36,610 bases of DNA from Acidimicrobiia bacterium (lineage in GTDB: Bacteria; Acidobacteriota; Vicinamibacteria; Vicinamibacterales; CAVVIG01): positions 1 to 36,610 of the forward strand of contig VFZL01000040.1 of assembly GCA_016871175.1 (NCBI GenBank), in the 5' to 3' direction. A program made the translations under genes and the position numbers. Below are positions 4,015 through 16,011 of this stretch, in pieces (positions within the stretch are counted from its first letter, which is position 1; each line of letters begins with the position of its first letter). Below the pieces are notes generated by a model. The model worked only from the letters and a program-made list of their open reading frames with translations, ran no database searches and had not been told where the DNA came from.

Positions 4015-5159
<1,145 letters not shown>

Positions 5160-6530
5160 GGCCGCTCCAGTCATCGGGTGTCTCGTCCGGATCGAGCGCC
5201 TCCTGCGGCGGCCGAAGAGCCTCTGGGACCTGTTCGAGGTTGATCCGGATGCGGGTCCACGTGCTGAAGCGTCCGCGCATGACGTCCACGAGGACATCGG
5301 ATTCACGCAGGTAGCGTGCCACCTCGAGGTGCCGTGCCTTCCAACGGTCCAGTCCGGCGAGCGCCGCATCACGCGAGCGCGAGCGTGCGATCTCGATGAG
5401 GGGTCTTGTCGACACGCGCCGTGCCGAGGCGTTCGATGCTCTTGATGGCTGCACGCGCAGCGGTTCGCCCGCCTGCTTGCGATAGTGCGGCGGCCACGGT
5501 ACGTCGCCGAGCCCGTCGCGCTCGTGTCGCGCCGCGAGCTCCACCAGACCGTCCAACGCAAAGGCCCGGTCGTCGATCGCGCGATGTCGATCGCCGACCG
5601 TCGCGAACCGCTCGGGCATGGTGGCCAGCGTGAAGTCCTCCGGTCGTGCCTCGTCGAGCTTTTCCCATGTCACGGGAGCAGAGACCCGCGCATCTGGCTT
5701 GGGACGCACCGAGTAGGCCGCTGCGACGGTGCGATCCTTGGCGTTCTGGTTGTAATCCAGAAACACGCCTTGACGTTCCTCCTTCCACCACTTGCTCGTG
5801 GCGAGCGTTGGCGCGCGGCGTTCGACTTCCCGCGCGAACGCGAGCGCCGCGCGACGCACCTGCTGGAACCCCCAGCGTCGCTCGATCCGGACGTACACGT
5901 GGATCCCCCGCGATCCCGACGTCTTCGGCCAACCGACGAGCGAGAAATCGTCGAGCGTGTGGCGGCCCCCCCCGCGACCTCGCGGAGCTGGTCCCACGCG
6001 ACGCCGGGAACGGGGTCGAGGTCGATGCGGAGCTCGTCCGGATGATCGAGATCGTCCGCGCGCACCGGATGCGGGTGGAGCTCGAGGCACGCGAGGTTGG
6101 CCATCCACGCGAGCGCGGCAGCGTCTCGTGGCACCACCTCCTCGGCCGAGCGGCCCGAGGGGAACGTCAACGAGACGACCTCCACCCACGCCGGTCGTGA
6201 GGTCGGCGCTCGCTTCTGGTAGAAGAACTCGCCGTCGATGCCGTTCGGATACCGCACGAGGACGTTCGGTCGGTTCCCCGCGGCACGCAACGCGCCGTCG
6301 GCCACGCTCAGGTAGTACTGGACCAAATCCCGCTTGGTGTGTCCCGCCTGCGGGAACAGGACCTTGTCGGGATTCGTGATCGACACCTCGCGCCCGCTGA
6401 CGGTTAGGATCTCCGCATCGGACGCTTTCCCCACATGGCGATGGTAGTCGATTCCGTTCGCCCGCTGATGACGCGCGACTGTGCCAGAATTCGTAGAGCG
6501 TGCCCGAGGGAGCCCACGCAAGGAGGACAT

Positions 6531-11320: not shown

Positions 11321-13465
11321 CTATCGCCCGTATTTCGCGGCTCTCGTCAAGTCGACCCCCTTGGCCTTACGCAACGCCGCCCAGAGATCGCCTACCTTGG
11401 CGAGCCGGGCGGGGACCGTTCGGATCGTGAAGTCCTCCCGATCGACGCCGGCTTCGATCTCGGCCCAGGTGAGAGGCGTCGAGACGCCAGCATATTCGCT
11501 CGCCCTGGCGCTGTAGGCCGACGCGAGCGTCTTTCCCATGACGTTCTGCAAGAAGTCCACATAGACACGACGACCACGGGCGCTGACCGTCCGCTCGACG
11601 GTTGCGATCTTCGGGTGCTTGTGTGCGACGACCGTGGCGATGATCTGACAGAAGAGCAGACCGGCCTCGTAGGGTGTACTTGGCGGCAGTGGGACGTAGA
11701 TGTGCAGACCGGACGATCCGGATGTTTTCGGCACGCCGACCGCGCCGATGGATTCGAGCTCATCGTGGATCGCTCGGGCGACGTCGAGGACTTGACGGAA
11801 GCGGACGCCGCTGGACGGGTCCAGATCCAGCGCCACGAAATCGGCGTCGCCCAACGACTGAACGCGAGAGAACCACGGATCCTGCGAGATCGCCGCGAGC
11901 TGTGTGGTGTACAGCACGGTCAAGAGGTCTCCGCCGATCACATGGGTTCGACTCGCGTCCGCTGGCTTTGTGCCGCCACCTGTCGAGGGCTCACGCACCG
12001 TCTCGGTGCGCACGCACGGTGGGACATTCGTCGCGCGGTGCTGATAGAACGGCTTGGCATCGACGCCGTTGGGGTAGCGCTTCATGACGAGCGGTCGGTC
12101 TGCGATGGCCGGCAGCAGTACAGGTGCGACCTGGACGTAGAAGCGAAACAGGTCTCCTTTGGTCAGCTTCAGCGAAGGCCAGAACGGTTTGTGCAGGTTG
12201 GTGACCGCGATGGATCGGCCGCCGCCGAGGTCGAGAGTCGCGTCCTGCCGGGCGCCTTCGAGGTGCTCGAACGCCCTCACCAGCGCGGTGATCTCTTCGG
12301 CCGACGGCGAGCCGTCGGCCGGCCGCTCATGTGTCCGCTCTCGCCGCGCGCCCGCGTTGGCCGTCGCGCCTCGGGGCCTCGAACCCCCGCCGGTCACCCG
12401 GGTTGCGCTCGCACGACCCGCTGCGTCGGGCCGCCGGGCGCGGTGGAAAGCCTCGGCCTCTGGAAGCCGCGCTCGCGTGCTGGCATGGAGCCGTCCGCCG
12501 GCTTCTCGCCGAACCTCACGCGCGCTCTTGTCGTCGCGAAGACCGAGGTAGACGGGATGCCGCAATTTGGCGTCGGCCGTCCACTCGGTGAACTTGATCT
12601 GGGCCACGAGGTCGGGCTTGATCCAGTGCGGGCGATCGTTGGTCTTTGGACGATCGGTAAACGGACACACCGACACCTCGCGGCGCTGCAGGAGCACCAT
12701 CACGCGCGCCAGCTCGCGCTTGTCGAACCCGGTGCCGACGTGCCCGACGTACACCAGTGCGTCGTCTTCGTACACGCCCAGCAGTAGCGCGCCGAAGTAG
12801 GTGCGCGCGTGACGTGGCTCGGTCCATCCGCCGATCACGAACTCCTGCTCGTGCAGGATCTTGAGCTTGCGCCACTCGGGCGTGCGCTTGCCGGACCGAT
12901 ACCGGGAGTCCACGTGCTTAGCGATCAGTCCCTCCCAACCGCTCTTGAGGGCGCGCTCATACAGCGCTCGACCGTCTCCCCGGACCTGCTCGCTGAGGCG
13001 GAGCACGACCGACTTCGCTTTCGTCGCCTTCCGCATCAACCGCTCGAGCACAGACCGCCGCTCGAGCAACGTGCACTCGCGCAGATCGTGGCCGGCTGCA
13101 CGAAGCACATCGAAGACGATGAACGCGACCGAGGCGCGCGGCTCGTTCGCGCCGGCCGCGACATGAATGCGCCCTTGTAGCTGCTGAAAACCCGTGGGTC
13201 GACCTTGGGCGTCCAGGGCGACCAGTTCACCGTCCAGGATGACCGTGTCGGGGAGGCGACGTCCCCAGGCGGCGAGCGCGGCGGCCACCTCGGGGAACTG
13301 CGCGGTCTTCTCGTTGCCGAGGCGCGACCACAGTCGAACCGCGCTTCCTGGATGAACCTCCGCGATCGTGCGAATGCCGTCGTACTTGGGTTCGTACACG
13401 AGGCGAGGATCCGCCAGCGGTGCATCGTCCAGGGCAGCCAGCATCGGTTGGAGGAAATCGGACAC
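11321..13465 (-). CDS. ligD: DNA ligase D: fused ATP-dependent ligase and primase-polymerase
   Basis: A 714-residue end-joining enzyme. The N-terminal ligase (about residues 1-310) has the catalytic Lys27 in EPKYDGIR, ILDGEL at 76-81, EGLIAK at 178-183 and the WRKLKI motif near 198-203. A basic, Ala/Arg-rich linker covers about 311-390. The polymerase (about 405-700) has the metal pair Asp547/Asp549 in ALDLDPSSG, His588 in KTSGSSGLHIYV and Asp637 in VYVDFLQN. All key residues are present. There is no 3'-phosphoesterase domain, so this is the ligase-polymerase arrangement, unlike the Pol-PE-ligase order of mycobacteria. LigD normally works with Ku, which is not in the window. The GTG start at 13465 follows a -10-like TACACT by 8 nt, suggesting a leaderless transcript. 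Confidence 0.95.
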   Translation of the reverse strand: MSDFLQPMLAALDDAPLADPRLVYEPKYDGIRTIAEVHPGSAVRLWSRLGNEKTAQFPEVAAALAAWGRRLPDTVILDGELVALDAQGRPTGFQQLQGRIHVAAGANEPRASVAFIVFDVLRAAGHDLRECTLLERRSVLERLMRKATKAKSVVLRLSEQVRGDGRALYERALKSGWEGLIAKHVDSRYRSGKRTPEWRKLKILHEQEFVIGGWTEPRHARTYFGALLLGVYEDDALVYVGHVGTGFDKRELARVMVLLQRREVSVCPFTDRPKTNDRPHWIKPDLVAQIKFTEWTADAKLRHPVYLGLRDDKSAREVRREAGGRLHASTRARLPEAEAFHRARRPDAAGRASATRVTGGGSRPRGATANAGARRERTHERPADGSPSAEEITALVRAFEHLEGARQDATLDLGGGRSIAVTNLHKPFWPSLKLTKGDLFRFYVQVAPVLLPAIADRPLVMKRYPNGVDAKPFYQHRATNVPPCVRTETVREPSTGGGTKPADASRTHVIGGDLLTVLYTTQLAAISQDPWFSRVQSLGDADFVALDLDPSSGVRFRQVLDVARAIHDELESIGAVGVPKTSGSSGLHIYVPLPPSTPYEAGLLFCQIIATVVAHKHPKIATVERTVSARGRRVYVDFLQNVMGKTLASAYSARASEYAGVSTPLTWAEIEAGVDREDFTIRTVPARLAKVGDLWAALRKAKGVDLTRAAKYGR

Positions 13466-13504: not shown

Positions 13505-13529
13505 CCCTCGAACCCTCGAACCCTACGAA
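13505..13529. repeat. Short CCCTCGAA tandem repeat
   Basis: Two copies of CCCTCGAA followed by CCCTACGAA occupy most of the gap between ligD and the GAF-GGDEF gene. The unit is very like the GAACCCTTGAACCC array at 31917-31988, so it appears to be a dispersed repeat type of this genome. Confidence 0.6.
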
Positions 13530-14563
13530 ATGCTGTTAGACACGGGCACCGCCGGCTCGCGCTCGAAGGCTGGGGGCGCAACGGCCGGGGTGTCACCGCG
13601 CGACTCGGGGCTTGAGTGGCGTGGCCGCACCCGCCGACGATGGGTCTTGTCGCGATACATCCGATGGTCGGCGTCCGCGAGGAGCGCTTCGTAGTTCGCC
13701 CCGTCGTGCGGGTACACCGCGACGCCGACGCTGGCGCCAAGCCTGATCGTCTTTCCGGGTCGCACCTCGAGCTCGATGGCTGCGATTCGATCCTGGAGGT
13801 CGCGCCGCCGCGACTCTGCCAGATCGCGTGAGCACTCTGACAGCACGACGATGAATTCGTCGCCGGCGTAGCGGACGCACAGATCGTACGGGCGGAGCCC
13901 GGTTTGGAGGGCCACAGCCACCTCGCGGAGCGCTCGATCGCCCACGTTGTGGCCGTAGGTGTCGTTGATCGTCTTGAAATCGTCGACGTCCATCACCAAG
14001 AGGCCGACTTCGCCTTTGAGCCGCTCGGCGCGCGCCAGCTCACGTGACAGGTGGGAGAACAGCGACCGGCGGTTCGGCAAGCCCGTCAGCGGATCGGTGA
14101 GCGAGTCCTCTTGTGTCTGCGCGAACGTCAACGAGTTCGCGATGACCGGACCCGCCTGCTCGGCAACGCGCTCGAGCAGTCGACGATGGTCCTCGGTGTA
14201 CCGCTTCGCATCCGTATGATAGAGGGCCAGGCACCCGATGAGTGTCTCGCCGTTGGAGTAGAGCGGCGTGATGATGGCCGACTTCAGCTCGGTGCCCGGT
14301 ACGCGGGCCGCCTCAAAGGTCACCGCCGGATCGGCGTTCACCAGCGTGCGGCGATTGAGGGCCACCCATCCGGAGAGCCCAGCCCCCGCTTCGATCGACA
14401 CGTCGAGCAGCTTGGGTGCGTCCACGCCAACCGCGAACTGACACTTGACCGTCTGCCCGTCGGCCTGCTGCAGGAACAGCGCACAGCCCGACCACGGCAC
14501 GATGTTGGTCAGTTTCGACGAGACGAGGGCCATCGTGTCGGTCAGGCCCAGGCTGGTGCCCAT
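13523..14563 (-). CDS. GAF-GGDEF protein (probable C-terminal half of a split HD-GYP/GGDEF enzyme)
   Basis: A 346-residue protein with a GAF-like sensor domain (about 1-145) and a diguanylate cyclase domain (about 155-315), which makes c-di-GMP from two GTP. The signature loop reads AGDEF (233-237) instead of GGDEF, a change tolerated by many active cyclases. Metal-site Asp192 lies in LLVMDVDDF, DPLTGLPNRR marks the domain start, and an inhibitory I-site RPYD (224-227) sits the usual five residues before the loop. It overlaps the end of the HD-GYP gene by 22 bp. The start MGTSLGLTDTMALVSSKLTN looks like the interior of a longer protein, in which YEIAQ-like residues normally precede it. It may still be translated by coupling. 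Confidence 0.85.
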   Translation of the reverse strand: MGTSLGLTDTMALVSSKLTNIVPWSGCALFLQQADGQTVKCQFAVGVDAPKLLDVSIEAGAGLSGWVALNRRTLVNADPAVTFEAARVPGTELKSAIITPLYSNGETLIGCLALYHTDAKRYTEDHRRLLERVAEQAGPVIANSLTFAQTQEDSLTDPLTGLPNRRSLFSHLSRELARAERLKGEVGLLVMDVDDFKTINDTYGHNVGDRALREVAVALQTGLRPYDLCVRYAGDEFIVVLSECSRDLAESRRRDLQDRIAAIELEVRPGKTIRLGASVGVAVYPHDGANYEALLADADHRMYRDKTHRRRVRPRHSSPESRGDTPAVAPPAFEREPAVPVSNSIS

Positions 14564-16011
14564 CGTCTACGCGATCTCGTGAGCGCGTAGATCTCGCGAT
14601 GCGCGAGCGCGATGTTCTCGTAGGCACTGCGCCCACTGGTGACCGTAAGCAGACCCGCGGTGTTGTCGTCCAGCTGCGAAGCGGCTGGCGCTGGCCACTG
14701 TCCCTCCTCGGGCATCGCCGCGAGCTCCGCCATCATCGTCGGTAGCAGCTCGATGAAGGTCTGCGCCAACGCCGGATCCAGGGCGCGGCCGGCTTCGTGT
14801 TTGAGCAGGGCGACCGCGCTGTCATGGCTCATCGCCTTGTGGTACGGCCGCTCCGTGGTAACGGCGTCGTAGTAGTCCACGATCGTGAGAATCCGCGCGC
14901 CGATGGGGATGTTCGTGCCGGACAGGTTGTTCGGATAGCCCTTCCCGTCCCACCGCTCGTGGTGGCTCAGAATGAGAGGTGCCACAGGATACGGGAACGG
15001 CACCGACGCGATGATCTCCGCGCCGACCTTCGGGTGAATCCGAATCTTCTGGAACTCCTCCTGCGTCAGCGGACCTGGCTTCGACAGGATGTGCTCGGGG
15101 ACCGCGAGCTTGCCGATGTCGTGCAGCAGGGCCGCCGTCTTGATCCCTTGTACGGCGTTGGGCGGCAGGCCGATTGCCTGGGCCAAGCCAACCGCATAGT
15201 ACTGCACCCGCCGGATGTGCGACTGAGTCGTCTGGTCCTTTGCATCGATGGCTCGGGCGAGGGCTTCGATCGTCGCGAGGTGCAGGTCGGAGGTCTGCTT
15301 GACGTGCCGCTGCTCGTCCTCGATGCGACCGAGGTAGATCTTGCAGGTCCGGAACGTCAGGTACACTGGCGCGAACAGCAGCGCGGCGAGACAGTACCCG
15401 GCGCTCGTCATGAACCACGCTGCCGCAGCGGCCACGCACGCGCCAACGAAATAGCTTGGCGAGCTGTACAGGAAGTTGGTGTGCCAGACGGTCGCGACGT
15501 TGTCGCGTGTCGAGAGCGCGATTGCCCCCGCCACCAATCCCGTGTTCACCAGGAAGTACACGATCGCGCCGCCGATGAGCGGCGCGACGAGCCCGACCGT
15601 CGGAACGTCCGACGACGGCATACCCAGGAGCCGCAGCGTGGCGCCGGCGGCGTGGATAGTCAGCACGAGTGTCGCCATGCTGAACACGATGCGATGCGGC
15701 GCGTTGCGTTCCCGCTGATGGAAGACGCTCTGGCTCAGCGCGCTGATCGCGGCCACCAGACTCGCGTCCTCCGCGCCCAGGAGGAGGAGCGCGGTGAAGT
15801 CGACGGCGTAGGACACCGAGAGCGTCGATCCGCTCACCGTCAGCGGGAGCGACACCTTCATGGACGCGCACACCGACGACAGCACGATGAGCGACGCCAG
15901 GAGGAACGGATTCGCGAACGACGACTGCAGCAGGCCGAGCCCCAGACACACGCCGCCGGCGAGGACGACGAGGCTGACATAGATCCGGGCGGCAATCGGC
16001 AGCTGCTTCAT
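14542..16011 (-). CDS. Membrane-bound HD-GYP phosphodiesterase (probable N-terminal half of a split enzyme)
   Basis: A 489-residue protein with an N-terminal membrane sensor of roughly eight hydrophobic segments (residues about 8-225), a short helical linker, and an HD-GYP domain (about 240-415) that degrades c-di-GMP. The HD pair is His297-Asp298 in LLHDIGKLAVPEHIL, followed by HHERWDGKGYP (350-360) with Gly358-Tyr359-Pro360; all core residues are present. After the domain the chain reads SAYENIALAHREIYAL and then breaks into basic residues and a stop. Reading the next frame from that point continues as a GAF-GGDEF protein. It starts 3 bp after the acetyltransferase stop, so the two genes are probably one operon. 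Confidence 0.9.
   Translation of the reverse strand: MKQLPIAARIYVSLVVLAGGVCLGLGLLQSSFANPFLLASLIVLSSVCASMKVSLPLTVSGSTLSVSYAVDFTALLLLGAEDASLVAAISALSQSVFHQRERNAPHRIVFSMATLVLTIHAAGATLRLLGMPSSDVPTVGLVAPLIGGAIVYFLVNTGLVAGAIALSTRDNVATVWHTNFLYSSPSYFVGACVAAAAAWFMTSAGYCLAALLFAPVYLTFRTCKIYLGRIEDEQRHVKQTSDLHLATIEALARAIDAKDQTTQSHIRRVQYYAVGLAQAIGLPPNAVQGIKTAALLHDIGKLAVPEHILSKPGPLTQEEFQKIRIHPKVGAEIIASVPFPYPVAPLILSHHERWDGKGYPNNLSGTNIPIGARILTIVDYYDAVTTERPYHKAMSHDSAVALLKHEAGRALDPALAQTFIELLPTMMAELAAMPEEGQWPAPAASQLDDNTAGLLTVTSGRSAYENIALAHREIYALTRSRRRWAPAWA

What the first reader, a model, noticed from the sequence alone, without database searches (positions are those of the whole stretch)
14540..14605. HD-GYP and GAF-GGDEF genes look like one split c-di-GMP enzyme
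The HD-GYP chain ends after AHREIYAL. With one base added on the coding strand, the frame continues YEIA, then TAG, then TMGTSLGLTDTMAL, directly into the GAF-GGDEF protein. I recall related proteins reading YEIAQTMGTSL at this point, so the break seems to combine a 1-base deletion and a CAG-to-TAG change. That is two events, less likely a single error. A make-and-break enzyme would become two separately translated halves.
Basis: partly seen in the sequence, partly recalled or inferred. Interest (0 to 1): 0.6.

Follow-up and report, generated by a model that had tools for sequence, protein, structure and literature searches.

The report
A broken make-and-break signalling gene
A bacterial gene that in its relatives makes one protein able in principle both to build and to destroy the messenger cyclic di-GMP is here cut in two by a lost base and a stop codon, but this assembly has many broken genes, so it is most likely ordinary gene decay or a sequencing fault and not a new kind of enzyme.

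Summary
On the minus strand the HD-GYP ORF (16011..14542) and the GAF-GGDEF ORF (14563..13523) are halves of one ancestral gene. The same-genus genome G001 reads AHREIYALYEIAQTMGTSL in one chain, and 48 of 48 aligned loci that span the junction (44 distinct) are single chains there. The window shows a 1-base loss at 14580/14581 and CAG-to-TAG at 14569, 11 bases apart. Both catalytic motif sets are intact.

This genome has internal stops or frameshifts in 14 of 163 genes compared with G001 (10 after dropping four weak ones), against 0 of 180 in reverse. The same contig holds two more broken frames: a DNA ligase cut at a 36-base C run and a cut Prim-Pol gene. Once the base is lost, C-to-T is silent in the HD-GYP frame and lies before the new ATG, so it need not be a second hit.

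Best reading: an ordinary lesion in a decaying gene (0.5). A consensus error is nearly as likely (0.37). A maintained two-protein split is possible (0.1). Shigella cyclases with a stop followed by Met are a published precedent. Low interest.

The parts
14542..16011 (-). HD-GYP half: membrane module (several predicted helices) plus HD-GYP domain; residues up to 14581 are homologous to the single chain, the last 12 codons and TGA are out of frame
   Evidence: (HD_5 1.5e-41)
13523..14563 (-). GAF-GGDEF half, ORF starting at ATG 14563
   Evidence: (GGDEF 1.2e-43, GAF_2 3.5e-15)
14580..14581 (-). place of the 1-base loss relative to relatives (CTCTACG there, CTCACG here)
14567..14569 (-). TAG in the GGDEF frame where relatives have CAG (Gln); two codons before the ATG
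14566..14591 (-). 8-base inverted repeat TCTACGCG / CGCGTAGA with a 10-base loop around the break; the C-to-T change completes it; probably incidental

Best explanation
The two ORFs are one ancestral gene for a membrane-anchored HD-GYP / GAF / GGDEF enzyme, which could in principle degrade and make c-di-GMP. It has been interrupted in the linker helix just before the GAF domain by a 1-base loss and a CAG-to-TAG change. Shown: the single-chain form in relatives, the two lesions, the intact motifs, and many other broken genes in this assembly. Inferred: the lesion is a real mutation in a genome that is losing dispensable genes; one change cut the link between the halves and the other was then close to neutral. 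If the mRNA is made, the membrane HD-GYP half is translated with a 12-residue tail, and the GAF-GGDEF half is made at best weakly, by reinitiation at the ATG at 14563 where the ORFs overlap by 22 bases.
For: Single chain in 48 of 48 junction-spanning aligned loci. Lesions seen directly. Other clear breaks in this genome: a TPR/sigma-54 activator with 3 stops and 1 insertion, a PAS kinase and the adjacent response regulator, a Ser/Thr kinase, a sulfate permease, a DinB-like gene (the response regulator was named from its N-terminus by me, not scanned). Deletions of 1, 4 and 7 bases outside long homopolymers. Events cluster within genes. Five long housekeeping frames (rpoB 1430, rpoC 1405, gyrA 862, a gyrA-like 822, a DnaE-like 1178 aa) are open. 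The bases around the break are otherwise well conserved.
Against: Two lesions 11 bases apart, three broken frames within about 10.5 kb of this contig and a 36-base C run also fit a faulty consensus. The broken kinase/regulator pair lies at the end of a contig. The housekeeping test has little power: 1.2 events expected, chance of none 0.30. Disruptions show no clear trend with conservation: 3.2, 0.9, 2.7 and 1.4 events per 10,000 codons from least to most conserved genes, where decay would favour the least conserved.
Confidence: 0.5

Rival explanations
1. Consensus or assembly error: the organism has the intact single-chain gene, and the draft sequence is wrong at these bases.
For: 14 of 163 genes (10 without weak ones) broken here against 0 of 180 in the related assembly. 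In the same contig a DNA ligase is cut at a 36-base C run, when the next longest homopolymer in 1.37 Mb is 9 bases and the G001 sample has none of 9 or more, and a Prim-Pol domain is cut into two frames. Lesions are clustered.
Against: The loss is not in a homopolymer. One other gene carries four lesions, as a true pseudogene would. Codons around the break show no other damage. Long core genes are open, though that test is weak.
Confidence: 0.37
2. A working split: the change is real and kept by selection, giving a membrane-bound phosphodiesterase and a separate, soluble GAF-gated diguanylate cyclase.
For: Both domains are whole in the two ORFs. No further stop or frameshift in 823 codons. dN/dS against G001 0.155 and 0.090. 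An ATG lies two codons after the TAG. Shigella degenerate cyclases with a stop and a nearby Met give two proteins and some still make c-di-GMP (PMC11327459).
Against: Seen in this one genome only. No Shine-Dalgarno before the ATG (-3.0 kcal/mol, 59% of random window 20-mers as good or better; the HD-GYP start itself is also weak, -3.8). Low dN/dS mostly reflects the time before the break. More residue changes on this branch than on G001's in the HD half (28 against 7) and not clearly in the GGDEF half (9 against 6). The genome breaks many genes.
Confidence: 0.1
3. Programmed frameshift, stop read-through or phase variation still yields a full-length chain.
For: A short hairpin lies at the site. 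A homologue in another family genome (G022) has two TAGs at Gln positions inside its HD-GYP domain.
Against: A frame change alone meets TAG at once, so a shift and a read-through would both be needed. TAG is an ordinary terminator here, 47 of 131 (one of them cut off). The fold is only mildly better than shuffles (z -2.14, 6 of 200 as stable). No repeat tract at the break.
Confidence: 0.03

Closest known systems
Degenerate diguanylate cyclases of Shigella flexneri (dgcQ, dgcM, dgcE, dgcN; PMC11327459: abstract, passages and section 11 read)
   Same: A nonsense lesion ahead of an intact GGDEF domain with a Met codon nearby; for dgcQ and dgcM the Met is three codons on and two proteins were seen
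   Different: Here an HD-GYP domain lies upstream and there is a base loss as well; no expression data; dgcM expression did not raise c-di-GMP in that study
Single-chain HD-GYP/GAF/GGDEF proteins of the same bacterial family (e.g. G001, 828 aa)
   Same: Same domains, same order, same linker, 80% and 85% identity in the two halves
   Different: Unbroken in relatives; broken only here
Gene-fragmenting consensus errors in draft assemblies (Kastor, PMC12007338; search listing and start of abstract only)
   Same: False frameshifts and premature stops found by comparison with a reference
   Different: The sequencing method of this genome is unknown, and the loss here is not in a homopolymer

Membership tests
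HD-GYP phosphodiesterase | HD and HHExxDGxGYP motifs in an HD_5 domain | tested here: met
   HD_5 1.5e-41; HDIGK and HHERWDGKGYP intact
HD-GYP phosphodiesterase | hydrolysis of c-di-GMP | not testable with these tools
   needs an assay
GGDEF diguanylate cyclase | [G/A]GDEF motif in a GGDEF domain, with RxxD inhibition site | tested here: met
   GGDEF 1.2e-43; RPYD-x5-AGDEF intact
GGDEF diguanylate cyclase | c-di-GMP synthesis by the separate half | not testable with these tools
   needs an assay
Degenerate split cyclase of the Shigella type | single-chain relatives, a lesion ahead of the GGDEF domain, a start codon close after it | tested here: met
Degenerate split cyclase of the Shigella type | second half is translated | not testable with these tools
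   no Shine-Dalgarno found; no expression data
Naturally two-gene HD-GYP + GAF-GGDEF pair | the same boundary between two genes in other genomes | tested here: not met
   0 of 48 junction-spanning aligned loci are split
Programmed frameshift gene | the new frame is open through the junction | tested here: not met
   TAG four codons into the other frame
Signalling-helix (S-helix) linker, PMC1592074 (passages read) | match to the S-helix sequence profile | not tested
   no profile at hand; a helix is predicted at 463-483 with low confidence

The most novel reading that the evidence does not exclude
In one lineage a bifunctional membrane c-di-GMP enzyme has been divided at its almost invariant linker into two working proteins, a membrane-bound phosphodiesterase and a free GAF-gated cyclase, translated by reinitiation in overlapping frames, so that synthesis is no longer tied to the membrane sensor.
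Probability: 0.1. Interest if true: 0.4.

Novelty: new member of a known kind. Interest (0 to 1): 0.15.

Why it matters
If real, it is one more case of a c-di-GMP enzyme broken in one lineage while both catalytic domains stay whole, like the degenerate Shigella cyclases. It would let one ask what the link between an HD-GYP and a GGDEF domain does, because the relatives examined keep them joined through an almost invariant linker. If an artefact, it warns that this assembly over-reports split genes, so other split-gene findings from it should be discounted.

Tried and rejected
Natural two-gene arrangement: rejected, 0 of 48 aligned junction-spanning loci. TAG recoding: rejected, TAG ends 47 of 131 checked ORFs of this genome (one of the 131 cut off at a stretch end). 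Programmed frameshift: rejected, the other frame meets TAG at once. One templated mutation at the inverted repeat: copying the left arm would explain C-to-T but not the base lost in the loop; CAG can become a stop in one step only as TAG, so completing the repeat is weak evidence, and 29 perfect 8-base repeats with loops of 3-20 bases occur in the window. Strong RNA structure: z -2.14, 6 of 200 shuffles as stable, unimpressive. Relaxed constraint after the split: 28 against 7 polarised residue changes in the HD half (P 0.0005), 9 against 6 in the GGDEF half; the halves do not differ significantly (P 0.17), so undecided. I wanted a baseline from another gene, but loci could no longer be cut. 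Core-gene test of artefact against decay: five long frames open, but only 1.2 events expected, so it does not decide. The model of the G001 chain (mean pLDDT 74.8, pTM 0.38) is used for domain limits only. A literature search for HD-GYP with GGDEF in Acidobacteria gave one listing, on Leptospirillum biofilms, not read; a search for HD-GYP, GGDEF, hybrid, bifunctional and c-di-GMP gave 57 papers, of which 15 listings were seen and passages of one read (PMC9756655, which saw no GGDEF or EAL together with HD-GYP in five alphaproteobacterial orders).

Filters and dropped rows: in the genome comparison, ORFs of at least 150 aa were kept only with a best-match identity of 55% or more, a coding-like substitution pattern and no large overlap with a better match. 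Looser filters gave 33 of 145 and 16 of 171 in reverse, and 27 of 130 and 11 of 149; I judged that these took in antisense frames and mis-set starts and tightened the filter. The first tight run, on a smaller sample, gave 9 of 127 and 0 of 144. Of the 14 disrupted genes, four were set aside as weak (odd frames or low identity), leaving 10 genes and 14 events. Of the 46 loci I aligned 20 (L039-L058) and left out L038 (the same gene as L008) and 25 distant matches. Of the 30 loci cut I aligned 29 (all but the window's own); further places in that table were not cut and not aligned. Of these 49 loci, L030 ends before the junction. The G022 contig with two TAGs was read but not aligned.

Full report
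What is in the sequence. On the minus strand an HD-GYP ORF (16011..14542, 489 aa) is followed by a GAF-GGDEF ORF (14563..13523, 346 aa), overlapping by 22 bases. Pfam finds HD_5 (1.5e-41) in the first, and GGDEF (1.2e-43) and GAF (GAF_2 3.5e-15) in the second. The first ORF reads AHREIYAL and then 12 shifted residues to TGA. The frame of the second reads GAG ATC GCG TAG ACG ATG.

It is one gene in relatives. The same-genus genome G001 encodes both in one open frame; the match is 828 aa, 80% identical in the HD-GYP half and 85% in the GGDEF half. The DNA differs at the junction by a 1-base loss between 14581 and 14580 and by C-to-T at 14569. I aligned 49 homologue loci (29 from the family search of 27 genomes; 20 from the scan of public genomes). 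One ends before the junction; the other 48 of 48 run through it in one frame without a stop. At 97% codon identity there are 45 distinct sequences including the window's, so 44 distinct single-chain homologues. They include paralogues (several genomes have two or more copies), so they are not all strict orthologues. A contig of genome G022, not in the alignment, runs through the junction in frame but has two TAGs at Gln positions in its HD-GYP domain.

Function of the ancestor. HDIGK is present in 43 of 43 homologues tallied and HHERWDGKGYP in 38 of 43 (the other five differ by one residue); RPYD-x5-AGDEF is present in the four commonest versions shown (37 of 43; 2 have a gap there, 4 were not shown). 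All three are intact in the window's copy. That these motifs mean phosphodiesterase and cyclase activity is established knowledge of the HD-GYP and GGDEF families. Solved relatives by sequence include a metal-dependent phosphohydrolase (4mcw) over residues 244-436 and diguanylate cyclase DosC (4zve) over 640-799. A model of the G001 chain (mean pLDDT 74.8, pTM 0.38) has helices of the HD-GYP part to 432, a stretch under pLDDT 50 at 435-468, a helix at 463-483 in which the break lies (at 477/478), and the next helix at 490, where the GAF match begins (489). Both catalytic parts are therefore whole in the two ORFs. The linker recalls the signalling helices of PMC1592074 (passages read), but membership was not tested.

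Are two events improbable as an error? I compared 1.37 Mb of this genome (window included) with 1.40 Mb of G001. With coding-signature filters, 14 of 163 G001 genes have an internal stop or frameshift in this genome, and 0 of 180 the other way (Fisher P 2e-5). Four of the 14 are weak; without them there are 10 genes and 14 events. Events cluster within genes (chance of as few as 10 genes 0.0023; of four or more in one gene 0.0006) and show no clear trend with conservation. In this same contig a DNA ligase frame is cut at a 36-base C run (4246-4281; adenylation-domain profile 1-64 before it and 74-204 after it in another frame), and a Prim-Pol domain is cut into profile 1-123 and 126-253 in two frames. 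The next longest homopolymer in the 1.37 Mb is 9 bases; none of 9 or more occurs in the G001 sample. A break in this genome is thus not rare, and the 'two events' argument loses force.

The second change may be neutral. After the base loss the HD-GYP frame reads CGT AGA at the site, where the ancestral C gives CGC AGA, so C-to-T is silent there (codons), and it lies before the new ATG. The reverse order also works: the stop first, then the base loss. The two changes are therefore not necessarily two independent hits on function.

Age of the break. No other stop or frameshift lies in the 823 conserved codons. If both halves were unconstrained, the chance of no further hit is about 0.21 after 1% and 0.045 after 2% neutral divergence, with an assumed indel rate of 5% of substitutions. 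So the break is young, or the halves are still under selection, or it is not real. dN/dS between the two genomes is 0.155 (HD half) and 0.090 (GGDEF half), which mostly reflects the time before the break. Residue changes polarised by 12 near homologues are 28 on this branch against 7 on G001's in the HD half, and 9 against 6 in the GGDEF half; a stricter count gives 20 against 5 and 7 against 2, with 15 of the 20 at residues 34-223, the membrane module. The halves do not differ significantly (P 0.17).

Translation of the second half. The 20 bases before the ATG at 14563 pair with the anti-Shine-Dalgarno at -3.0 kcal/mol; 59% of random window 20-mers do as well or better. The HD-GYP start is also weak (-3.8). 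Reinitiation after the upstream ORF is possible but not shown. There is a precedent: in Shigella flexneri, dgcQ and dgcM carry a stop with a Met three codons on and give two proteins on a blot (dgcM also a third band); expression of dgcE, dgcQ and dgcN raised a c-di-GMP signal, while dgcM lowered it (PMC11327459: abstract, passages and section 11 read).

Other c-di-GMP genes. This genome has 11 GGDEF and 7 HD_5 matches, G001 15 and 10, so loss of this enzyme would not remove the system.

Weighing. That this is an interrupted copy of a single-chain gene is close to certain for the sequence as given. Real lesion in a decaying gene 0.5; consensus error 0.37; maintained split 0.1; programmed expression 0.03. 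These odds are judgement. Reads would settle the first two. The arrangement is a new example of a known kind (degenerate cyclases with whole GGDEF domains) and of low interest.

Noticed in passing
window 4027-4856, + strand, C run at 4246-4281: An ATP-dependent DNA ligase frame is cut at a 36-base C run: adenylation profile 1-64 before it, 74-204 after it in another frame. The longest other homopolymer in 1.37 Mb of this genome is 9 bases.
   Followed up: partly
window 5587-6338, - strand: A stand-alone LigD-type Prim-Pol domain is cut into two frames (profile 1-123 and 126-253, five bases apart), beside the broken ligase.
   Followed up: partly
window 11324-13465, - strand: A LigD-like protein with ligase domains first and Prim-Pol last, without a phosphoesterase match.
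   Followed up: no
G000:C1:98006-100937: A TPR/sigma-54 activator gene (977 aa in G001) has three stops and a 1-base insertion here: a clear multi-hit broken gene.
   Followed up: partly
G000:C3:137005-137763: Another Prim-Pol match of this genome holds one internal TAG.
   Followed up: no
L084 (G022:C364:1-3500): A homologue of the single-chain enzyme in another family genome has two TAGs at Gln positions within the HD-GYP domain while the rest is in frame to the contig end.
   Followed up: partly
G000 whole genome: A strong match to the rpoB model is in this genome but none was found in G001, and the best DnaE/PolC match of G001 (971 bits) has no counterpart of that strength here (599 bits): both assemblies seem to lack some core genes.
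   Followed up: no
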